12,662 nucleotides of DNA, taken from Anaerolineae bacterium. GTDB lineage: Bacteria; Chloroflexota; Anaerolineae; B4-G1. The position numbers and the translations under genes were made by a program. Shown here in pieces: positions 3 to 11,613 of this stretch. Every line of letters starts with the position of its first letter. Within the stretch, counting starts at the first letter, position 1. The notes under the pieces are model-generated. The model had not been told where the DNA came from. It worked only from the letters and a program-made list of their open reading frames with translations, and searched no databases. Location of the stretch: positions 1 to 12,662 of the forward strand of contig JAUXFI010000034.1 of the NCBI GenBank assembly GCA_030620125.1, given 5' to 3'.

Positions 3-110
3 ACCTATCAACTCGCTCCGGATGATCCCAGTTTCTCCGCAGACTACATCCTGACCATCGGCCAGCGCATCTCGTGGCTGGAACGACAGTGTGGCCGAGG
101 CGAAACATAA
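3..110 (+). CDS. C-terminal end of an unidentified protein (partial, starts before the window)
   Basis: The frame beginning at base 3 is open to a TAA at 108-110 and gives 35 residues ending in 'WLERQCGRGET'. The other two forward frames close earlier (TGA at 23-25 and 52-54). The next ATG lies 12 nt after the stop, which fits an operon-like arrangement with the STAND array. I do not recognise the family from so short a tail. If it is the gene upstream of the array, it would be a natural place to look for an effector or partner protein, but nothing in these residues shows that. The frame is plausible but not certain. Confidence 0.45.
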   Translation, partial: TYQLAPDDPSFSADYILTIGQRISWLERQCGRGET

Positions 111-122
111 GGCGGTAGAGCG

Positions 123-212
123 ATGATTAACTATTTGGACTCGATTGCCGAACGGACCAAAGACTTCACCGGTTGCGGGTGGGTCTTTTGCAAGAAGGTG
201 GAGGCCCGATGA
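123..212 (+). pseudogene. Relic of the start of a type-1 STAND NTPase gene
   Basis: A 29-residue ORF starts at ATG 123 and reads through 'IAERTKDFTG' to a TGA at 210-212. It resembles the N-terminus of the intact gene at 415, where a short helix leads into 'LLRDFTGRAWL'. The conserved R-x-W after DFTG is here C-G-W. After about base 185 the sequence stops resembling a coding N-terminus. It instead matches the leader that precedes the other two type-2 starts (a 'gcaag-aggt-gagg' pattern before ATGACA). The simplest reading is that a deletion joined the first ~20 codons of a type-1 gene to the leader of the following type-2 gene. It overlaps the next relic by ATGA. The match is short, so confidence is moderate. 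Confidence 0.5.
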
Positions 213-418
213 CAAACGTCCAGATCAAACTCACCGAATTTCCCGACCTCGTAGCCCTCTACACCACTGACTTCGTCGGGCGCGAGTGGCTGGTGGAGCA
301 GGTGAATGCGCTGCTCGACGAGCTCGACTGCCCCTTCGTCGTCCTCGCCGGCGGCCCAGGCGTGGGCAAAGCTGGAGGCGTTTCCGGAAAACGCGTCGGG
401 AGCTGGTTTGAGAGATGA
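209..418 (+). pseudogene. Type-2 STAND NTPase gene truncated just after Walker A
   Basis: From ATG 209 the product begins MTNVQIKLTEF and closely follows the N-terminus of the intact gene at 4980, through 'DFVGREWL' and the P-loop 'GGPGVGK'. Homology ends at about base 370, in the middle of Walker A: the expected T and the 'AFLAHLA' helix are replaced by unrelated residues, and the frame stops at 416-418. Walker B and everything downstream are missing, so it cannot be a working NTPase. I prefer ATG 209 over the upstream in-frame ATG at 173 because it aligns with the other two copies and has a GGAGG about 5 nt upstream. The stop overlaps the next gene's start by ATGA. The ~44 bases after 370 match no other part of the array that I can see. 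Confidence 0.75.
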
Positions 419-3400
419 GCCTTCTGCAGGACTTCGCCGAGCTTGCTGACGAACTACTCCGCGATTTCACGGGGCGCGCGTGGCTAGTCCAGTGCGTGCG
501 TGAGTTTCTAGATGACCCGCACGCTCCACATTTCTTTCTCATCGTTGGCGAGCCAGGGATCGGCAAGAGCGCCTTCATTGCATACCTATGGCAGCGCGTC
601 CAGATATCAGACGCCGTTCACCTCTGTATCGGTGGGCGAGGCGGCACGACCGAGCCGTTAAGCTTTGTCCAGTCCCTCGCCGTGCAACTGACCCATCGCG
701 TACCTGGCTTCGGTCAGGCTCTGGTGGAAGCGCAAGAAGCGTTTCCTGACCGCAACGTGATCATCACCGTCTCCCAGCCCATCAAGTCGATGGAGGGAGG
801 GCAGGTCACCGGAGTGAGTATCCAGCACCTGGAGGTTCGAGGCTTGCCCCCAGAGACAGCCTTTGACCGACTCATCCGCCTCCCCCTGCGGGCTCTGGAT
901 GAGGGAGGAGAACTGCCGCAAGTCGTCATCTTGGTGGATGCTCTAGACGAGGCCGTTGCTCATGTCAGCCGCCCCTATATCGTGGAGATCCTGAGACAGG
1001 CGCACGACTTACCGCTTCAGGTCCGCTTCGTCCTGACGAGCCGTCCCGATCCGAGTGTCCTGGGCAGTTTCGCCGACCTGCCTCACGTCACTATCGAGGC
1101 CCAGAGCCCCGAGAACCAGGAGGATGTCGCTCACTATTTGACCCATATCCTACAGTGTAACAAGCAACTAGTAGGAATCCTCATTGATGCGGGCTGGGAT
1201 GAAGCGCGATTCGTCAACGACCTGGGGGAGATGGGTGAGTGGAACTTCCTCTATCTGAGCTTGGTATTGCCAGAGATCGCTGCGGGCCGCCTTCATCTTG
1301 GGCAGCATGTGCTACCAAGCGAGCTCGACGGATACTACCGATATCTGCTGAGCACTCGCCTGGGGCTGGAGAAGTGGGGCGAGTGGGGTGCAGATCTGAT
1401 GGAGGTTGTGCTGGCCCTGCAAGAGCCAGCTTCGTTGAAACAGATAGCAGCCTACCTGAGGTGGTCGAAACGGCAGGCACACTGGCGACTGGAGCAAGTG
1501 GGCCAGTTGCTGGACCCTGGATTACGGGAACAGGAGCGATACTGGCGCTATCATTGGTCCGTAGCTGACTTCCTGACCGACCAGGACCAGGCCAGGGAGT
1601 TCTGGTGTGATGAACAGCAGGGTCACGCTCGCATCGCTGATCATTATCTGCGTGCTTGGAGGGGACTGGAGACCGGATTGCCGGGACTCCAGGAGCCGGA
1701 GAAGCGGGATCTGCACGGCGGTTATGGTCCGCGCCACCTAGTTGCCCACCTAGAGGGCGCAGACCGCGTGGACGATTTACACTGTCTGCTGTGCCTGGAA
1801 TGGCAAGTGGGTAAGCAGTGGGAGAACCTGTGGTACGCCGTGAAAGAAGGGACGGGTGATACGAGCGACTACTTGGCCGACGTAGCCCACGCCTGGCGGC
1901 TGGTAGAAGAGGCCTACGTCCCTACCGACAGCGCACATGCGGGGCAAAGCATCAGCCTGCAAATCCGGTACTCGCTTATCATTGCTTCTTTCAACAGCCT
2001 GGCCAACAACTTCCCACCTGCGCTGCTGACCATACTGGTGGAGAAAGGGGTGTGGAGCCCGGCTCAGGGGCTGGCCTATGCCCGGCAGATGCCGGAGCCA
2101 GAGCAGCGGGCCCTGACGCTGGCAAGGTTGGCCTCTCACTTGGCGGCGCTGGGCTGCTCTGAGAAGGCACTCGCAGTGGCACGAGAGTTGCCCCAGAAAG
2201 ACCGGTGGGGCGGAAGCCCCCAAGTGATGACACTGGCAGGGCTAGCGCCGCACTTGCCGGAGGTGAAGCGCTCGCAACTCTTGGGGGAGGCGTTGGTGGT
2301 GGCACGGGAATTGCCGGAGGAGATGGCCCCGGCGGCACATATCATCGAACAAGCCGGGGTTTGGTGTGCGGCCTGTCCAGGGCTGACTATTGGATCAGGG
2401 GACCTAACCATGCTGGAGACCAAAGAGGTTGCTTTGGGACAGGCAGGGGTACTGGCACAGCATCTTAACCGGCAGTACCGCAGAGGGCTGCTAACGGAGG
2501 ACGAGCTAGATGCCAGGGTGATGGCGGTGTGGACGGAGACCTCGGAGGCCGTCACAGAGTTGGTGGCGCAGGCACTGGCGGAGCTGGCATCCTGGGTGCC
2601 AGGGCCAAGCCACTTTGAGGAAATACTGGTAGCAGCGCGGGAGACTGAGGACGGGTGCTGGCAGGCGCGCGTGCTAGCCGGGATAGCTCCGCGCCTGCCC
2701 GAGCCGCTACTGCGGGAGGCGTTGGCAGTGGCACGGGCGATTGAGGACAAGGACGCCCGAGCGGTGGCACTGGCGGGGCTGGTGTGCCGGTTGGCTGAGC
2801 TGGGCCATCCTGACGAGGCGCTCGCGGTAATGCGGGTGATTGAGAGCGAGTACTGGCGAGTGAAGGCGCTGGCAAGGCTGGGGCTTCACATCTCACAATT
2901 AGAGCAGCCATTGCAGAACGCCCTGACGATAGCGCGGGCGATTGAGGACGAGTACTGGCGAGCACGGGCGCTGGCAGGGCTGGCCCCTCACCTGCCAGAA
3001 TCGCTGCTGCGGGAGGCACTCGCGGCGGCGCGGGCCGTTGAGGACAGGTACTGGCGAGAACGGGCGCTGGCGGAGCTGGCGTTGCGGATGGCTGAGTTGA
3101 GCCATCACGAGGAAGCGCTGGCGATAGCGCAGGCGATTGAGAACGAGTGGTGGCGAGCGAGGGCGCTGGCGGGGTTGGCCCTTCAGCTTTCGCGGCCATT
3201 GCTGCAGCAGGCGTTGGAGGCGGCACTGGTGATTGGATGGGGAAGGGCACGGGCAGAGGCACTGGCAGTGATGGCGTCCCGGCTCGCTGAGTTGGGCCAT
3301 CCCGAGGAGGCGCTGGCAACCGCGCGGGAGATCGAGAACGGGTACTGGCGGGCGCGGGCGCTGGCCGGTCTGGTTCCTCATCTGCCACAGTCGAAGCAGG

Positions 3401-4947
3401 TATTGCGGGAGGCGCTGGGGCAGGCACAGGAGGTTGGGGACGCGTATGATCGAGCACAAGCCCTTGTGGAACTAGCGTTGCATCTCCCGGAGCCGGACCA
3501 GGCGCTGCAGGAAGCGCTCGCGGCAGCGCGGGCGATTGGGGACGAGCAGAGACGGGTGTCGGTGCTGCTGGAGCTGGCGTCTCACCTGTCGAATCCGGAG
3601 CAGGCATTGCAGGAAGCGCTGGCGGCAGCGCGGGGGATTCAGAGCGAGCACTCGCGAGCACGAGTGCTGGAGGAGCTGGGCTCCTACTTGCCAGAGGATC
3701 TGCTGTGGGAGGCTCTAGTTGTGGCACGGATGGTTGAGGATGAGCGGTTGCGAGCACAGGTGGTGGAGAGTCTAGCGGTGCGACTGGCCGACCTGGGCCA
3801 CTCTGACGAGGCGCTGGCGGTGGCACGCGAGATTGAGAACGAGTACTGGCGAGCGGGAGCATTGGCAAGGCTGGTCCCTCACCTGCCGGAATCGCTGCTG
3901 CGGGAGGCCTTGGTAGAGACGCTGGCGTTGAGAACAGAGTTGCAGGAGCGTGTGTTCGACGAGGGGGACAAGCGAGGACGGGCGTTGGGGGAGATGGCGT
4001 CCCGACTGGCTGAGTTGGGCCATCCTGAAGAGGCACTGGCGATAGCGCGGGAGATTGAGGACGAGTACTTGCGAGCACGAACACTGGGAGAGCTGACCCC
4101 GCACCTGACGGAGCTCCTGCTAGAGGAGGCACTGGCGATGGCGTGGGCTATTGAGGACAAGTGGTGGGGAGCAGAGGCACTAGCAGGGCTGGGCGACCCC
4201 AACGGGGCACTAGCGAGAGCGCGAGAGGTTGAGAACAGGTTCAACCGTGTGAATGCACTGATGGCGCTCGTTCCACACTTGCCACTGCCGGAGCAGGCAC
4301 TGCAGGAAGCGCTAACAGAAGTCCAGAAGATGGAGGAAGAAGGCTGGCGGGCAGAAGCGCTGGCATTGCTAGCCCGCCTCTTGCCAGAGGATCTGCTGCA
4401 GGAGGCTCTGGTTGTGGCACGGGCGGTTGAGGATGAGTGGTTGCGAGCACCGGCGGTGGAGAGTCTGGCAGTACGGCTGGCTGACCTGGGCCACCCAGAC
4501 GAGGCGCTGGCGGTGGCGCGCGAGATTGAGAACGATCACTGGCCGTGGGCAGAGTTGGCCCCTCACCTGTCACAGACATCGCTGCAAGAGGCGTTGGGTA
4601 CAGTCCGGGAGATTGAGAACGAGTACTGGCGAGGACAGGCACTGGGGAAACTTGTTTCTCATCTGCCAAAACCACTCTTTCGGGAAGCGCTGGCGGCGGC
4701 GTGTGAGATTGGAAGGCGGCCCCGGGCGGAGATACTGGCCAGGCTGACTCCCCGTCTGACCAAGCTGTCCCCTGCCACCCTATACCCTCTTTGGTACGAG
4801 GCACTCCACATTCTGGCTCGTCGAACTCGCGAAGATCTCCTCTCCGACCTCCGTGCCCTGTCCCCCGTCATCGCCGAGCTAGGTGGCGAGGAAGCCATCG
4901 CTGAAACCTTCCACGCTATCCAGGATGTGGGCCGCTGGTGGCCGTGA
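415..4947 (+). CDS. Giant STAND/NACHT-like NTPase with TPR-like solenoid tail (type 1)
   Basis: Encodes 1510 aa. Residues 1-44 are a short leader with 'DFTGRAWL'. Walker A is GEPGIGKS (45-52). Walker B is VVILVDALDEA (170-180), whose acidic DALDE ending is typical of NACHT/STAND ATPases. 'FVLTSRPDP' (205-213) is the sensor-like strand. A winged-helix-like region follows, with 'YHWSVADFL' and then 'LPGLQEPEK'. From about residue 735 to 1450 there are some 22 helical repeats built around 'EALAVAREIENEYWRARAL'; two or three looser repeats lie nearer the NTPase. The protein ends in 'AIQDVGRWWP'. STAND proteins generally oligomerise on ligand binding, with the solenoid as sensor, so this is a likely cytoplasmic receptor or switch; the ligand and output are unknown. 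No N-terminal effector domain, signal peptide or membrane segment is visible. ATG 415 overlaps the upstream stop, and the Shine-Dalgarno sequence is weak. Confidence 0.9.
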   Translation: MSLLQDFAELADELLRDFTGRAWLVQCVREFLDDPHAPHFFLIVGEPGIGKSAFIAYLWQRVQISDAVHLCIGGRGGTTEPLSFVQSLAVQLTHRVPGFGQALVEAQEAFPDRNVIITVSQPIKSMEGGQVTGVSIQHLEVRGLPPETAFDRLIRLPLRALDEGGELPQVVILVDALDEAVAHVSRPYIVEILRQAHDLPLQVRFVLTSRPDPSVLGSFADLPHVTIEAQSPENQEDVAHYLTHILQCNKQLVGILIDAGWDEARFVNDLGEMGEWNFLYLSLVLPEIAAGRLHLGQHVLPSELDGYYRYLLSTRLGLEKWGEWGADLMEVVLALQEPASLKQIAAYLRWSKRQAHWRLEQVGQLLDPGLREQERYWRYHWSVADFLTDQDQAREFWCDEQQGHARIADHYLRAWRGLETGLPGLQEPEKRDLHGGYGPRHLVAHLEGADRVDDLHCLLCLEWQVGKQWENLWYAVKEGTGDTSDYLADVAHAWRLVEEAYVPTDSAHAGQSISLQIRYSLIIASFNSLANNFPPALLTILVEKGVWSPAQGLAYARQMPEPEQRALTLARLASHLAALGCSEKALAVARELPQKDRWGGSPQVMTLAGLAPHLPEVKRSQLLGEALVVARELPEEMAPAAHIIEQAGVWCAACPGLTIGSGDLTMLETKEVALGQAGVLAQHLNRQYRRGLLTEDELDARVMAVWTETSEAVTELVAQALAELASWVPGPSHFEEILVAARETEDGCWQARVLAGIAPRLPEPLLREALAVARAIEDKDARAVALAGLVCRLAELGHPDEALAVMRVIESEYWRVKALARLGLHISQLEQPLQNALTIARAIEDEYWRARALAGLAPHLPESLLREALAAARAVEDRYWRERALAELALRMAELSHHEEALAIAQAIENEWWRARALAGLALQLSRPLLQQALEAALVIGWGRARAEALAVMASRLAELGHPEEALATAREIENGYWRARALAGLVPHLPQSKQVLREALGQAQEVGDAYDRAQALVELALHLPEPDQALQEALAAARAIGDEQRRVSVLLELASHLSNPEQALQEALAAARGIQSEHSRARVLEELGSYLPEDLLWEALVVARMVEDERLRAQVVESLAVRLADLGHSDEALAVAREIENEYWRAGALARLVPHLPESLLREALVETLALRTELQERVFDEGDKRGRALGEMASRLAELGHPEEALAIAREIEDEYLRARTLGELTPHLTELLLEEALAMAWAIEDKWWGAEALAGLGDPNGALARAREVENRFNRVNALMALVPHLPLPEQALQEALTEVQKMEEEGWRAEALALLARLLPEDLLQEALVVARAVEDEWLRAPAVESLAVRLADLGHPDEALAVAREIENDHWPWAELAPHLSQTSLQEALGTVREIENEYWRGQALGKLVSHLPKPLFREALAAACEIGRRPRAEILARLTPRLTKLSPATLYPLWYEALHILARRTREDLLSDLRALSPVIAELGGEEAIAETFHAIQDVGRWWP
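3688..3849 (+). repeat. Internal segmental duplication, copy 1
   Basis: The 54 codons beginning 'LPEDLLWEALVVAR' recur 693 bp downstream (4381-4542). By hand count the two copies differ at about 18 of 162 bases and 8 of 54 residues, much closer to each other than to any neighbouring unit. An offset of 231 codons equals about seven repeat units. This indicates a recent duplication or gene-conversion event inside the solenoid that preserved the reading frame. Confidence 0.8.
4381..4542 (+). repeat. Internal segmental duplication, copy 2
   Basis: Partner of the block at 3688-3849, beginning 'LPEDLLQEALVVAR'. The replacements relative to copy 1 are W/Q, M/A, R/W, Q/P, V/A, S/P, E/D and Y/H. By hand count, about half of the changed codons alter the amino acid. 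The unit after this copy is shortened, going from 'NDHWPWAELAPHL' straight on, so the array length is still changing. Confidence 0.8.
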
Positions 4948-4979
4948 CCATCCGCCATGGGGGCGAAGGTTAAAGCGTG

Positions 4980-7900
4980 ATGACAAACGTCCGAATCAAA
5001 CTCACCGAATTCTCCGACCTCATCACTCGCTACACCGCCGACTTCGTCGGGCGGGAGTGGCTCGCGAAGCAAGTGAACGCGCTGCTCGACGACCCCGGCT
5101 GCCGCTTCGTCGTCCTCACCGGCGGTCCCGGCGTGGGCAAGACCGCCTTCCTGGCCCACCTGGCTGCGACCCATCCACAGTGGCCCCGCTACTTCATCCG
5201 ACGCGACAGCCGCGACCTCCTGCGCCCTGGCGATGCCAACACCTTTCTCCTCACCATCGGCGGGCAACTGGCTACCCTCTACCCCCACCTCTTCCACCCC
5301 GAGAACCTGGAGGTCGTCGTTCGCCAGCGGATTGGGAGTGTGGCCGCTGGCGGTGAGGCGACCGCTGTCCGCATTGACGAACTGCGCGCTTCACCTTTCT
5401 ACAGCGTGGCCCTGCGCGTCGAGCAGGAGATCCAGTGGGTGGCGGGCAAGGCCACGGCGGTAGAGATCAGTCGCCTGGTGAGCGATGCCCGGTTGTTGCA
5501 GATGCAGGACCTACAATACCTGGGCCTGCTGGACCCGGCCCGGCTGCTGGCGCAGACCGACCCAGAGGTGCGGATCGTGGTGCTGGTGGACGCCCTGGAC
5601 GAGCTGCGCTACAGCCCAGCCGAGCCGGACATCCTGCGGGTGTTGAGGGCACTACCCGAGGTTCCGTCCAACCTGCGCTTTGTGATCAGTTCGCGGCCGG
5701 AGGCGTTCCTGGGGCGACTGCTTTCGCGGAGCGATGCCCACGAACTGCTACTGGACGTGGCTGGGGTGGAGAACCAGGCCGACCTGCGGGCCTACACCGA
5801 GGGTGCGTTGGCCTGTGATGGGCTGGAACCAGCCCTGGCAGAGGAGGGACTGAGCCCAGAGGCGTTTGTTGAAGGGTTGTTGGACAAGGCTGCCGGCAAC
5901 TTTCTGTATCTCAAGAGCGTGCTGGGCGGGATCCAGGAAGCGCTTGTGGACCCGGCGAAGCGGGATCGGCTGCGTCGCCTTTTGCGCGTTGAGGAGTTGC
6001 CTGACGGCCTGGGCGCGTTGTATGGCTACTTTCTAGCGTCCATTGTGGATTGGGTCAAGCGGAGTGGATTCGGTGACGCAGCCTGGAGGAGGTATCTCTC
6101 GCCGTTCTTGGGCGTACTGGCTGTGGCCCAGGAGCCGTTGAGTGAGGGGCAACTCATTGGTTTCACGGAGCTCGAACCAGAGGACATACGGGACTTGCTG
6201 CGCGAGCTGAGCCAGTTTGTCGAGACTGTTGATGGCGGACAGGCAGTGTATCGTATCTATCACACTTCCTTTGCTGAGTACTTGCTTGATAGCGAGCGCA
6301 ACCGCCACTATTGGATTGACGGGCAGAAGGCGCACCGCCGCAGTGCCGACTACTACCTGAACGCTTGGGCTGGGTTGGAGGCCTGGCTGCCGGGATTGCA
6401 GGAACCTGAGAAGTGGGAGTTAGACGGCGGCTACGGCTTACGCCACGTAGTAGTACATCTTGTCCAAGCAGAGGGGGTGGAAGATGCCTTATCAATCATT
6501 AAGCCAGGCTTTCGCGAGGCGAAACGCGTTCATTTGGGCACTGATCTCAGTTTTGTCCGTGATCTTGAAGTCATCCTTGGTTACCTTGAAGAACGTGGAC
6601 AGGCCGATGGTCTGCCAGCGACAATTCGCTGCTCCCTGATCCACTCCCTGTTGACCAATCTCATGGATACTCTCCCCCCTGAGGTCTTGTCGGCACTCGT
6701 ATGGTTTGGTGAAAGCGATCGGGCACTTGAGTTAGCGACCCTGCCACCTGACAGTGAGGAGAAAGTTGCGCGGTTTTTAGCAATAGCGCAGGCACTCAGA
6801 CAATCAGGAGCAGATGCGGAGATACCCAAGCGTATTCTACAGGAAGCACTTCGAACCACTCGATCACTCACGCGAGTCGCTGAGGGAACCCAAGACTTGC
6901 TCCGGGTCAGGGTTGCCAAGCAGGTTGCTCACCTGGACTGGGATTGGTCTCAGAGAATACTCGGGGAAATCGAGCATCCTTACATTCGAGCTCAATCAAA
7001 GATGGCGGTCGCCGCTGAAGTGGCTGAAGATGAGACCAGGGCTATTGGGCTGCTACGTGAGGTGCTACCGACCATCACCGGTTCCTCCCCGTTGATCTGG
7101 GACTTCTCTATCGCGTTAGGGAAAGCAGCTCAGCATCATCTGGGGGCTATCCAGAGTCTCATCAAGTCTATCGGGGATCAGTGTCTGCAGGACCTGGTTC
7201 GCCGAGAGGTTGCCAAACAGCTCCTTGAAAACAACGCGTGCCATTTGGCGCTGAGCATCGCTGAGGAAATAAGGAAACCCACCGAATCAATGACTGTACT
7301 TGGTCACATTGCAAGCTGTCTGGCTGAAGAGAACGTCGAAGAAGCCTATCGTGTTTTGGAAGACATCTCGCCGGCTGAGAAAGGCTCACGGGCCCTACTT
7401 GATTGCATCGGGGCTCTTTCTCCTGAGCATGCTGGATTCGCTTTGAATATAGCGAACAGGATCGTGGATGCCAGCGAAAGATGTCGTGCATTGGCACAAA
7501 CGGACCTCCTATTTGCGAGAGCACATGACATCGACAAAGCTCAGGCAATTCTGAAGAGTGTACGCAACATAGCTGACCAACTACCACCCTCGGACGTTTC
7601 ACTTGTCTTTCTTCTAGCGACAATCGGTGAAACCATAGCAGAAATAGCCCTGGTCGATGAAGGCATAGCAAGGGAAATGATAGCCGAATGGCAATCTATT
7701 AAGGATGGTCAGTACATTGCGAACTCCATCTGCCGATTGCTGCTGGATCGTGATGCTGAACTTACACTTCGACTGGCTGAATTGATCACTCATCCATACC
7801 TGAAGGGGATTCTGCTCGCACGAGCAGTTTTTCGCTTGACCCCCGATGACCCGCGCGTCTTGACCCTGCGGGGGCATATTAGAGAGCTAATGAAAGTGGT

Positions 7901-9638
7901 AACTGATGAGGAGTGTAGGCGCCAACTGCAAGCCTATCTGCTCGCGTCCGAAGGAGTGGATACCCCGGAACGTCTCTTGTCTATCTGGGAGAAGGAACCC
8001 GAGCCAGGCGTTCAGGAAACAGGGTTCTCAACCGAGATTGTTATTGGCCCTTCGGGTGTCGATTACCCAGCCAGTGAAGACACAGAGCAAAGCGATGACG
8101 TCTTGATCGGTCTTGCTCTGGACGTTGCTCATAGAAATGCTGATCAAGCGCTTGTGGTCCTTCATGCTGTACTTGATCACAACCGTCAGATTCGTGGGTT
8201 GGCACAGATGGCCCGCCTTCTGAGCGGGCGGATTGGAATGACTGACCTTGACGATGAAGGTCAAGCCAGCCGTCTTCGGCACAGGAATTCTCTGATAGAC
8301 GATGTGTCTGTGGCCTGCGGACAACTGGTCAAACACGATGTTCAATTGGCATCAAGAATCGTGGAGGCTATACCGGATAGAAGTGAGCAATCTAGAGCCT
8401 ATGCAGCAATGGCCCTCTCTCTGAGAGATAGAGACTTCGACCAAGCTCAACTGTTCTTGGAGAGGGCCTTGGCTGTTGGTCAGGCACGACCTGAGTCTGC
8501 TCTGAGAACTATGGCCTACCTTGAACTTGACAGATGTATTCCGGAAGAGAGTCAAGAGGTTGATCTTGTTAAGAAGGCGCTTTCATCCCTTCCAGTGGAT
8601 AGCATCCCCGCCGCTGTTCCCGAAGTAACCAGACACATTGTGACGCATCTGGCTGCTAAGGGCAAGGAGGAAGTTGCTCTGGATATCGCGGAGAGGATGC
8701 CCGCTACTCATACACTTTTGGATATTCCTGACAAGATGAGAGCCCTGCTTGGAATCGCCGAGCACGCCATTGAACGTAAAAAACCGAGCGTTGGGAAGGA
8801 AGCCTTGGATGCGGCTCTCGACATCTTGCGGCTATCTTCTTATGAAGCCCCTTTGCTTCCCAGGTTGGCTTCACTCATGCACCACTACGATCCCGCACTG
8901 GCAGAGCAGTTGTTTGACAACGCCGTTGAGATTGCAATGAGTCGGCAGATGTATGGACCATCACGTTTCCAGATTCTTGGCGGTGTAGCACGCTTCCGGG
9001 CGGCCTTCAATGTTCAAGCTGCCCTTGACGCTGCGAGAAAGATCTCGGATCCATCAATAAGGGCAAATGCGTTGATGTCCGCTGTGACTCGAGGTAACAT
9101 ACCAGTTGAAAAGAAGCCAGAGGTTATAGCAGAGGTGCAAGCACTTCTGGCAAGTGACTCCGGTGATGCTATTGCAAAAGGGCGCGCGCTGCTGAAGCTG
9201 GTGGACACTGGAGCGCCTGAGCGGTTGAATCCTCGTGACTTGCTATGGAATGTGGCGCAAACGGCGAGACTCGCGCAGCCAGCGGATTGGTTCAAGCGAA
9301 TAGGTCTCTTGACTGAGATATACCACCTGTTCGAGGATCTGGGCGATCAGAAGGCTGCTGAAAGAATCCTATCCGAGGCTCTAGACACTGCACGAAACGA
9401 TCCGTTTAATCGAGCCGTGTGTACGGCTCAGGTAGCGCGGCTATATCTCAGCCGCGATCGCTCTAGGGCGATTCTCATTCTGTATGAGATTCTTAGAAGG
9501 GCCCGTCTGGAAGGGTATGACGCAGTATGGACGGCAATCACAGCTATCATTTCCGTTATGTGCAAAGTCGGTGGAAACACGTTGGCACAGCATGTTTATG
9601 AAGAACTCAACATTGCTGAGGAGTTCCTATCAGATTGA
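4980..9638 (+). CDS. Giant STAND/NACHT-like NTPase with divergent solenoid tail (type 2)
   Basis: Encodes 1552 aa from ATG 4980. The GTG one codon earlier is less likely because the two relic copies begin at the equivalent ATG. N-terminal 'DFVGREWL' (21-28) is followed by Walker A GGPGVGKT (48-55), 'YFIRRDSRDLLRP' (71-83), Walker B VRIVVLVDALDEL (197-209) and 'FVISSRP' (234-240). A winged-helix-like region follows, then 'YRIYHTSFAEYLLD' and the 'LPGLQEPEK' block shared with the upstream gene. The remaining ~1050 residues are degenerate helical repeats, interrupted at about 1005-1041 by an acidic linker rich in E, D, S, P and G. The gene lies 32 nt after the upstream STAND gene, so the two are probably co-transcribed. 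The coding DNA is about 65% GC before base ~6480 and about 50% after it (local samples). It is a probable cytoplasmic sensor ATPase with no visible effector domain; its ligand is unknown. Confidence 0.9.
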   Translation: MTNVRIKLTEFSDLITRYTADFVGREWLAKQVNALLDDPGCRFVVLTGGPGVGKTAFLAHLAATHPQWPRYFIRRDSRDLLRPGDANTFLLTIGGQLATLYPHLFHPENLEVVVRQRIGSVAAGGEATAVRIDELRASPFYSVALRVEQEIQWVAGKATAVEISRLVSDARLLQMQDLQYLGLLDPARLLAQTDPEVRIVVLVDALDELRYSPAEPDILRVLRALPEVPSNLRFVISSRPEAFLGRLLSRSDAHELLLDVAGVENQADLRAYTEGALACDGLEPALAEEGLSPEAFVEGLLDKAAGNFLYLKSVLGGIQEALVDPAKRDRLRRLLRVEELPDGLGALYGYFLASIVDWVKRSGFGDAAWRRYLSPFLGVLAVAQEPLSEGQLIGFTELEPEDIRDLLRELSQFVETVDGGQAVYRIYHTSFAEYLLDSERNRHYWIDGQKAHRRSADYYLNAWAGLEAWLPGLQEPEKWELDGGYGLRHVVVHLVQAEGVEDALSIIKPGFREAKRVHLGTDLSFVRDLEVILGYLEERGQADGLPATIRCSLIHSLLTNLMDTLPPEVLSALVWFGESDRALELATLPPDSEEKVARFLAIAQALRQSGADAEIPKRILQEALRTTRSLTRVAEGTQDLLRVRVAKQVAHLDWDWSQRILGEIEHPYIRAQSKMAVAAEVAEDETRAIGLLREVLPTITGSSPLIWDFSIALGKAAQHHLGAIQSLIKSIGDQCLQDLVRREVAKQLLENNACHLALSIAEEIRKPTESMTVLGHIASCLAEENVEEAYRVLEDISPAEKGSRALLDCIGALSPEHAGFALNIANRIVDASERCRALAQTDLLFARAHDIDKAQAILKSVRNIADQLPPSDVSLVFLLATIGETIAEIALVDEGIAREMIAEWQSIKDGQYIANSICRLLLDRDAELTLRLAELITHPYLKGILLARAVFRLTPDDPRVLTLRGHIRELMKVVTDEECRRQLQAYLLASEGVDTPERLLSIWEKEPEPGVQETGFSTEIVIGPSGVDYPASEDTEQSDDVLIGLALDVAHRNADQALVVLHAVLDHNRQIRGLAQMARLLSGRIGMTDLDDEGQASRLRHRNSLIDDVSVACGQLVKHDVQLASRIVEAIPDRSEQSRAYAAMALSLRDRDFDQAQLFLERALAVGQARPESALRTMAYLELDRCIPEESQEVDLVKKALSSLPVDSIPAAVPEVTRHIVTHLAAKGKEEVALDIAERMPATHTLLDIPDKMRALLGIAEHAIERKKPSVGKEALDAALDILRLSSYEAPLLPRLASLMHHYDPALAEQLFDNAVEIAMSRQMYGPSRFQILGGVARFRAAFNVQAALDAARKISDPSIRANALMSAVTRGNIPVEKKPEVIAEVQALLASDSGDAIAKGRALLKLVDTGAPERLNPRDLLWNVAQTARLAQPADWFKRIGLLTEIYHLFEDLGDQKAAERILSEALDTARNDPFNRAVCTAQVARLYLSRDRSRAILILYEILRRARLEGYDAVWTAITAIISVMCKVGGNTLAQHVYEELNIAEEFLSD

Positions 9639-9653
9639 GCCCGCGAATCTTGT

Positions 9654-9723
9654 GCCCAGTCCTAACTGTTTTGGAGGGGAGCATCGAGACCCTTATACCA
9701 TCCAGGACATAGGACACTGGTGA
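9654..9723 (+). pseudogene. Orphan relic of a STAND gene C-terminal end
   Basis: After the stop of the 1552-aa gene, the DNA from 'gcccagtcct' to TGA 9721-9723 lines up with the last codons of the 1510-aa gene (about 4855-4947) and with the tail of the deleted copy at 10016-10109. The final codons read 'TIQDIGHW' where the other copies read 'AIQDVGRWWP'. The middle has lost some 20 bases and the frame is broken upstream. The sequence beyond the stop ('tgaccat' followed by a 'gcaaggttgagg' leader) also matches the spacer after the 1510-aa gene. I read it as the last trace of a type-1 gene that once stood between the 1552-aa gene and the next type-2 start. Confidence 0.65.
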
Positions 9724-9772
9724 CCATAACCGTTCGCTACGTTGATATGGACGGAAGCAAGGTTGAGGTCTA

Positions 9773-10109
9773 ATGACAGACGTCCAAGTCAAACTCACCG
9801 AATTTTCCGACCTCATCACCCGCTACACCGCCGATTTCGTCGGACGGGAGTGGTTGGTGGAGCAGGTGGACGCGCTGCTCGACGACCCCGACTGCTGCTT
9901 CGTCGTCCTTACCGGCGGCCCCGGCGTGGGCAAGACCGCCTTCCTGGCCCACCTGGCCGCCACCCACTCCCAATGGCTCCGCTACTTTATCCGCCGCGAC
10001 AGCCGTGACCTCCTGCGCCCCAGTCCTCGTCATCGCCGCGCTGGGCAGGCCGGAGGCCATGGTGGAAACCTTCCGCGCTATCCAGGATGTGGGCCGCTGG
10101 TGGCCGTGA
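9773..10109 (+). pseudogene. Type-2 STAND gene reduced to its two ends by internal deletion
   Basis: Residues 1-83 from ATG 9773 (MTDVQVKLTEF through GGPGVGKT to 'DSRDLLRP') closely match the intact gene at 4980. At about base 10020 the sequence jumps to a type-1-style C-terminus in another frame (codons from 10020): 'VIAALGRPEAMVETF', then 'AIQDVGRWWP' and TGA 10107-10109. More than four kilobases of expected coding sequence are missing, including Walker B, the winged helix and all repeats. Both flanks carry a 'tgc(gc)ccc'-like word, so a short-homology deletion is plausible. It could be a deletion within one gene or a fusion between the start of one gene and the end of the next. The N-terminal frame runs on to a TGA at 10199-10201 without matching anything. 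Confidence 0.8.
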
Positions 10110-11392: not shown

Positions 11393-11400
11393 ATGGAGAA
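11393..11400 (+). repeat. Target-site duplication, left copy
   Basis: The 8-mer atggagaa abuts the left terminal inverted repeat of the MITE-like element and is repeated exactly after the right one (11606-11613). An AAGGAG (11386-11391) just before it looks like the original Shine-Dalgarno sequence of the downstream corrinoid gene. Confidence 0.75.
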
Positions 11401-11605
11401 TTCTCTACCGTACAGAACTTCCGTTCTATACTCAGACATAGTGAAAAACACCAGTTTCTTGTACCAGAAGATCAATCTGTGCCTGAAAGTCGTTCAGCAA
11501 CCGACCAAACAGGACGATTACTAGCCTGTCCAGGGTAGCAAACTGTGAAGACAAAGGCTTTTTATCGCATTTGGGTGCAGAACAAACATTCTGTACGGTA
11601 GAGAA
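11401..11605. mobile_element. MITE-like non-autonomous element, 205 bp
   Basis: The ends are perfect 17-bp inverted repeats: ttctctaccgtacagaa at 11401-11417 and its reverse complement at 11589-11605. Pairing continues imperfectly for ten more bases on each side, giving 23 of 27 matches by hand count. Immediately outside lie exact 8-bp direct repeats (11393-11400 and 11606-11613), as expected of a target-site duplication. The interior is visibly more AT-rich than the flanking genes and has no convincing ORF, so movement would need a transposase in trans. Together with a few flanking bases it accounts for the whole 238-nt gap between the two methyl-transfer genes. The parent insertion sequence family is not identifiable here; an 8-bp duplication is shared by several. 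Confidence 0.8.
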
Positions 11606-11613
11606 ATGGAGAA
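11606..11613 (+). repeat. Target-site duplication, right copy, supplying the ribosome binding site
   Basis: Exact copy of 11393-11400. It contains GGAG at 11608-11611, eight bases before ATG 11620. The corrinoid gene therefore probably kept a workable Shine-Dalgarno sequence after the insertion because the duplication regenerated it. Confidence 0.7.

What the first reader, a model, noticed from the sequence alone, without database searches (positions are those of the whole stretch)
123..10109. STAND NTPase genes arranged as a decaying array of type-1/type-2 pairs
Read left to right, the array gives: type-1 start relic (123), type-2 start relic (209), type-1 gene (415), type-2 gene (4980), type-1 C-terminal relic (9654), type-2 relic (9773). 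That is the same pair three times, with only the central pair intact. The three type-2 starts share a leader, and two type-1-like ends share the same downstream spacer. This suggests that a two-gene unit was duplicated as a unit and that outer copies were removed by deletion. The two proteins may work together, as paired sensor/helper receptors do in plant NLR clusters. The architecture is seen in the sequence; the functional pairing is inference.
Basis: partly seen in the sequence, partly recalled or inferred. Interest (0 to 1): 0.8.

Follow-up and report, generated by a model that had tools for sequence, protein, structure and literature searches.

The report
Modular bacterial receptor array, polymerase fragment captured
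A bacterial contig holds a partly decayed row of immune-receptor-like genes that appear to swap their parts, and one of them carries a piece of RNA polymerase that might serve as bait for a virus protein.

Summary
The array is real: two intact STAND NTPase genes (415-4947, 4980-9638) flanked by relics, with three type-2 heads 84-88% identical. "The same pair three times" does not hold. The tail read as type-1 (AIQDVGRWWP) ends proteins of both head types (6 of 13 close type-1-head and 10 of 34 close type-2-head proteins), so 9773-10109 is most simply one type-2-headed gene with an internal deletion. The 123 relic resembles another STAND subgroup more than type-1. Of 11 relatives with both flanks, one (L007) has a type-1-side/type-2-side neighbour pair in the same order. 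Best reading: a tandem array of modular genes whose heads, bodies and tails recombine; the type-2 gene is itself a compositional chimera (GC3 0.77 head, 0.50 body).

None of the other 267 STAND-side proteins searched has it. It could be an integrated decoy; this is one instance and untested, and neutral capture is likelier.

The parts
123..194 (+). Relic: start of a STAND gene (29 codons, then a stop); nearest to L007's first STAND, not clearly type-1
   Evidence: Best of 252 proteins L007_6130 E 3e-5, P0001 E 45
195..369 (+). Relic: type-2 head (ATG 209) cut off just after the P-loop glycines
   Evidence: 83.5-84.6% identical to the other two type-2 heads
415..4947 (+). Intact type-1 STAND gene, 1510 aa: NTPase head, helical repeats, WWP tail
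2326..2577 (+). In-frame fragment of RNA polymerase beta' (RpoC) inside type-1, residues 638-721: rim-helix hairpin with lead-in
   Evidence: helix hairpin modelled
4846..4947 (+). Conserved tail of the type-1 gene (…AIQDVGRWWP)
   Evidence: 81.6% identical to 10007-10109; tail found with both head types
4980..9638 (+). Intact type-2 STAND gene, 1552 aa, chimeric: conserved head about 4980-6482, body of different composition about 6483-9635
   Evidence: GC3 0.77 vs 0.50; head relatives up to 79% identical
9654..9726 (+). Decayed copy of the conserved tail, out of frame; most simply the old tail of the 4980 gene
   Evidence: 1 of 200 shuffles; transitions dominate
9759..10109 (+). Relic gene: type-2 head (9759-10020, ATG 9773) joined to the conserved tail (10021-10109) by an internal deletion

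Best explanation
A tandem array of NLR-like STAND NTPase genes, probably from an Anaerolineae-like Chloroflexota bacterium, in which each gene is built from exchangeable modules: a conserved NTPase head (two old types), a variable helical-repeat body that is probably the sensor, and a short conserved tail. Recombination between like heads and like tails duplicates genes, deletes bodies (leaving the relics) and lets foreign pieces in (the type-2 body; the RpoC fragment in type-1). Shown: the modules, the relics, the composition break, the captured RpoC hairpin. Inferred: that the body binds an invader's protein, that binding lets the NTPase head oligomerise as in other STAND proteins, and that the effector is a separate protein, because no effector domain was recognised in either protein.
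For: Tails occur with both head types; P0021 joins a type-2 head (77%) to a type-1-like body (36%) and tail. GC3 0.77 in the type-2 head, 0.50 in its body. Head-tail deletion product at 9759-10109. Two head sides with 100% SH-aLRT. Relatives beside genes for patatin, clostripain and CHAT proteins (L007) or an LCAT-like protein (L004). Tandem STAND rows elsewhere: five in Phormidium.
Against: L007 keeps a type-1-side and a type-2-side gene side by side in the window's order, as a fixed pair would. Homology of the type-2 head to relatives fades over residues about 500-640, and reaches 800 in P0125, so the breakpoint is not sharp. No recombination was observed between strains; no genome or second copy of this locus is held.
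Confidence: 0.65

Rival explanations
1. One reading: a two-gene type-1/type-2 unit was duplicated as a unit, the outer copies decayed, and the two proteins act as a sensor/helper pair.
For: L007 has one gene of each side, same order, same strand. The 123 relic (nearest to L007's first gene) stands before a type-2 head relic. A tail-spacer-head block is present twice.
Against: The tail is shared by both head types, so no third type-1 gene is shown. 10 of 11 flanked loci have no second head. The five Phormidium genes are all type-1-side.
Confidence: 0.25
2. About the RpoC fragment: neutral capture. A piece of an rpoC gene was inserted into the repeat region and has been carried along in frame without a role.
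For: Single instance: none of the other 267 STAND-side proteins searched. 18 of 42 positions conserved among the 12 database RpoCs are changed. The locus seems to accept foreign pieces.
Against: After more than 50% divergence it is still ungapped, in its original frame and strand, without a stop, and its hairpin tip is intact.
Confidence: 0.6
3. About the RpoC fragment: integrated decoy. The hairpin imitates the polymerase's docking site and senses phage or plasmid proteins that bind there.
For: Tip kept at 7 of 7 conserved positions against 8 of 22 elsewhere with nine independently fetched RpoCs (p 0.006). Glu697 aligns with E. coli beta' E677 (offset); E677G polymerase does not bind DksA (PMC6488371, passages). 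TraR and phage homologues bind the rim helices (PMC9239242, passages).
Against: One protein only; tip region chosen after seeing the data; no binding shown; the model in its repeat context has low confidence (block means 37-66).
Confidence: 0.22

Closest known systems
Bacterial STAND/NACHT antiphage receptors (Avs, bNACHT; recalled, with PMC12169576 abstract, and PMC12931631 listing)
   Same: NTPase head plus C-terminal repeat body, large proteins; bNACHT25 senses phage indirectly through a host protein (DnaJ).
   Different: PADLOC has no model for type-1 and one weak match for type-2 (STAND_TPR, E 3.3e-5); no fused effector domain recognised; defence not tested; embedded RpoC piece not described for them in the searches made.
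STAND-containing conflict systems of multicellular bacteria (PMC7159879, passages)
   Same: STAND NTPases with repeats, separate effectors, decoys by inactive enzymes suggested.
   Different: No vWA/MoxR, VMAP or EAD partner was identified in the window; not searched with dedicated models.
Plant and fungal NLR clusters with integrated decoys and sensor/helper pairs (PMC12258605, passages)
   Same: A host-protein piece fused into a receptor; clustered genes.
   Different: Bacterial, same-strand tandem rather than head-to-head; no function shown; analogy, not homology of the arrangement.

Membership tests
STAND NTPases | P-loop NTPase with Walker A and B in a NACHT/AAA_16/NPHP3_N-like domain | tested here: met
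   Type-1 NPHP3_N over cut-off (41.5 vs 24.8 bits); type-2 NPHP3_N 26.3 vs 24.8 and AAA_16 32.7 vs 32.6; motifs
STAND NTPases | C-terminal superstructure-forming repeats | tested here: met
   Type-1: 13 copies of a 119-nt repeat, helical repeats in the model. Type-2 body: no clear repeat family
Known antiphage STAND systems in PADLOC-DB | Match to a model of a known system | tested here: not met
   Type-1 none; type-2 one weak partial match, STAND_TPR 20.3 bits
Paired sensor/helper receptors | The two types conserved as neighbours across relatives | tested here: inconclusive
   1 of 11 flanked loci, relatives distant at 35-39%
Paired sensor/helper receptors | One partner senses, the other executes | not testable with these tools
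   Needs expression and gene removal
Integrated decoy receptor | Receptor carries a piece homologous to a host protein | tested here: met
   RpoC fragment
Integrated decoy receptor | The piece is bound by an invader's protein and this triggers the receptor | not testable with these tools
   No binding data

The most novel reading that the evidence does not exclude
A bacterial NLR-like receptor has captured the docking hairpin of a bacterial RNA polymerase as an integrated decoy: phage or plasmid proteins that seize the polymerase through its secondary channel (TraR-, DksA- or Gre-like) bind the receptor's copy and trigger it. The surrounding array of recombining heads, bodies and tails is the workshop that makes such captures.
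Probability: 0.22. Interest if true: 0.88.

Novelty: new variant of a known kind. Interest (0 to 1): 0.6.

Why it matters
If the RpoC hairpin is a working decoy, bacteria use the integrated-decoy strategy known from plant NLRs, and the bait itself would name the kind of ligand in advance, which is a directly testable prediction for a bacterial receptor. Even if it is not, the array shows receptor genes that seem to exchange heads, bodies and tails across two old NTPase types, with deletion products still in place.

Tried and rejected
Pair-unit duplication: not preferred, because the tail occurs with both head types; not excluded (L007).

P0044's precomputed ribosomal S7 domain looked like a second housekeeping fragment. 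Rejected: the Pfam match overlaps TPR matches, no stretch of it passes on its own, and NCBIfam shows no S7 match. It serves as an example of a spurious repeat match.

A SHOCT-like reading of the RpoC stretch (DUF1707, 19.7 bits, below its cut-off of 27.6): rejected, because the parts before and after the tip each match RpoC at colinear positions (before the tip 0, 0, 10 and 5 of 2000 shuffles reach the score in four RpoCs; after it 1, 7, 4 and 4 of 2000).

Led nowhere: 370-414 has no assignable source and neither has the upstream fragment 3-110. Viral contigs: 38 pattern matches, none a relative of the type-2 heads. Phage records: no match to the type-1 head. Plasmids: 2 Streptomyces records at 34-36% for the type-2 head, none for the type-2 body. 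Solved structures: none for the type-2 body. The type-2 body matched only weakly in 3 of 396 genomes; the protein search took its words from the first 500 residues, so relatives of the body alone were not sought there. Chloroflexota samples held a close type-2 head in 1 of 396 and 1 of 400 genomes (the same genome), with only the top few candidates per genome scored. No RNA family at gathering threshold and no tRNA in the window. The structure model of the fragment was made with RpoC rows in its alignment, so its fold matches (all 50 listed of 520 are RNA polymerase or transcription-complex entries, best E 0.03, none at 0.001 or below) are not independent evidence.

Full report
What is in the window. 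The contig is 12,662 bases and appears to be the whole record (longest contig of both window proteins). Two long ORFs, 415-4947 (1510 aa) and 4980-9638 (1552 aa from the ATG), are STAND NTPases with Walker A and B motifs. Their heads are 31% identical. Downstream lie a URO-D family gene, a corrinoid-protein gene and a partial ORF without a Pfam match, which look unrelated. No whole genome is held. A Chloroflexota (Anaerolineae-like) source is inferred from named relatives (P0003; P0244 and P0251) and from L008.

Relics. A nucleotide self-comparison gives three type-2 heads (195-369, 4966-5227, 9759-10020) and two clear copies of one tail (4846-4947, 10007-10109). A third, decayed tail near 9654-9726 is above chance (1 of 200 shuffles). 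In the tail-spacer-head alignment, the tail core to the first spacer bases has 31 identical positions, 12 transitions and 1 transversion; the whole tail block has 58, 26 and 12. The spacer alone is not above chance (62 of 200 shuffles). The relic at 123 is a STAND start, but among 252 proteins it matches L007's first STAND best (E 3e-5) and the window's type-1 poorly (E 45).

Why the pair reading is weakened. Among proteins close to the window heads, 6 of 13 with type-1 heads and 10 of 34 with type-2 heads end in WWP. Over all 252 it is 26 of 40 on the type-1 side, 24 of 134 on the type-2 side, and 57 of 78 without a head match (the window's proteins and some genome ORFs are counted, and the side is the better of two BLAST scores). 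The tail is thus commoner on the type-1 side overall, but it does not identify type-1. Relic 9759-10109 is a type-2 head joined to this tail: one gene with an internal deletion. The 9654 tail is most simply the old tail of the 4980 gene. That gene's body has GC3 0.50 against 0.77 in its head, with the fall near 6330-6480. Homology to other type-2-headed proteins stops at residue 502 in P0021, P0127 and P0134, but runs on to about 574-642 in others and to 800 in P0125, so the breakpoint is blurred. None of the other 251 proteins matches the body from residue 601 on at E 1e-3, although that set was collected by head words. This reading needs no lost third type-1 gene; it is inference.

Relatives. 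In a tree of 92 of the 180 heads found, one branch with 100% SH-aLRT support separates a type-1 side (42 rows) from a type-2 side (50 rows) (quick search). The second genome-contig scan gave 13 loci. Of these, 11 have more than 2 kb on both sides of the head (not L001 and L008), and only L007 has a second head at E 1e-6; several of the 11 come from the same genome or genus. L007 (Desulfobacterales) has a patatin gene, an unassigned ORF, a clostripain gene and a CHAT gene, then a type-1-side STAND with WD40 repeats, then a type-2-side STAND. In Phormidium, five STANDs stand in a row on one strand (869, 433, 1755, 468 and 1457 aa reading downstream), all on the type-1 side. L004 has an LCAT-like gene after its STAND, and L011 has a similar-looking gene before it.

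The RNA polymerase fragment. NCBIfam matched type-1 residues 637-723 to RpoC (TIGR02386, E 5.4e-8). Against PDB sequences all 60 matches shown, of 74, are RNA polymerase chains (best E 1.6e-7). Against 5.8 billion proteins, with 342 candidates sharing words, the 12 hits other than itself all carry the same five core Pfam accessions (RNA polymerase beta' by recall; 4 are named so by a source), identity 39-46%, best E 4.0e-8. The alignments to these 12 are ungapped over 78-84 residues. A profile from nine RpoCs taken from genomes, found independently of that search, matches the fragment with 47.5 bits and none of the other 267 STAND-side proteins at E 1 or better. The true score against two RpoCs is 143 and 141; 2000 shuffles reach at most 27 and 23. 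In an alignment with eight type-1 relatives none shows a counterpart; P0004 has repeat sequence of its own there. The piece is the beta' rim-helix hairpin (region name recalled). AlphaFold, given RpoC rows, models two long helices (block means 81-95 over most of the hairpin), and in its repeat context with low confidence (block means 37-66).

Is the fragment kept for a reason? With the 12 database RpoCs, tip positions 686-697 are kept at 12 of 12 and other conserved positions at 12 of 30 (p 0.0003), but those RpoCs were found through shared words, which favours the tip. With nine independent RpoCs it is 7 of 7 against 8 of 22 (p 0.006). The tip was chosen after seeing the data. Glu697 lines up with E. 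coli beta' E677 by the offset (72 residues on both sides). An E677G polymerase does not bind DksA (PMC6488371, passages). TraR and its phage homologues bind the rim helices (PMC9239242, passages). This fits an integrated decoy but rests on one protein; neutral capture is at present more likely.

Prior work. PMC7159879 (passages) describes conflict systems with STAND NTPases and suggests decoys by inactive enzymes. Integrated decoys and sensor-helper pairs are described for plant and fungal NLRs (PMC12258605, passages). bNACHT25 senses phage through DnaJ (PMC12169576, abstract). PMC12409349 (passages) reviews phage sensing, including decoy nucleotides. Five searches for decoys or integrated domains (listings, apart from the passages cited) listed no bacterial receptor with an RNA polymerase fragment. 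Lists were cut at 8-15 rows, and the library lacks most subscription papers.

Noticed in passing
window 11393-11613: Imperfect inverted repeat (arms 11401-11434 and 11572-11605, 79% complementary) flanked on both sides by the same 8 bases (11393-11400 and 11606-11613, read): looks like a small non-autonomous transposon (MITE) between the URO-D and corrinoid genes.
   Followed up: partly
window 3-110: Last 35 codons of an upstream gene on the same strand; too short to identify; a possible partner of the array.
   Followed up: partly
L043 (Phormidium, G747:C27): Five STAND genes in a row on one strand, long ones with repeats alternating with short NTPase-only ones of 433 and 468 aa.
   Followed up: partly
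L008 2785-3966 and 1-357: A 393-aa ORF (hydrophobic stretch near its C-terminus by eye; only a weak Card1-like Pfam match) stands just before a 73%-identical type-2 head; at the other contig end a minus-strand ORF ends in what looks like another STAND start.
   Followed up: partly
window 2615-4701: Type-1 body holds a 13-copy family of 119-nt repeats with spacings of 96-276 nt, a likely substrate for unequal recombination.
   Followed up: no
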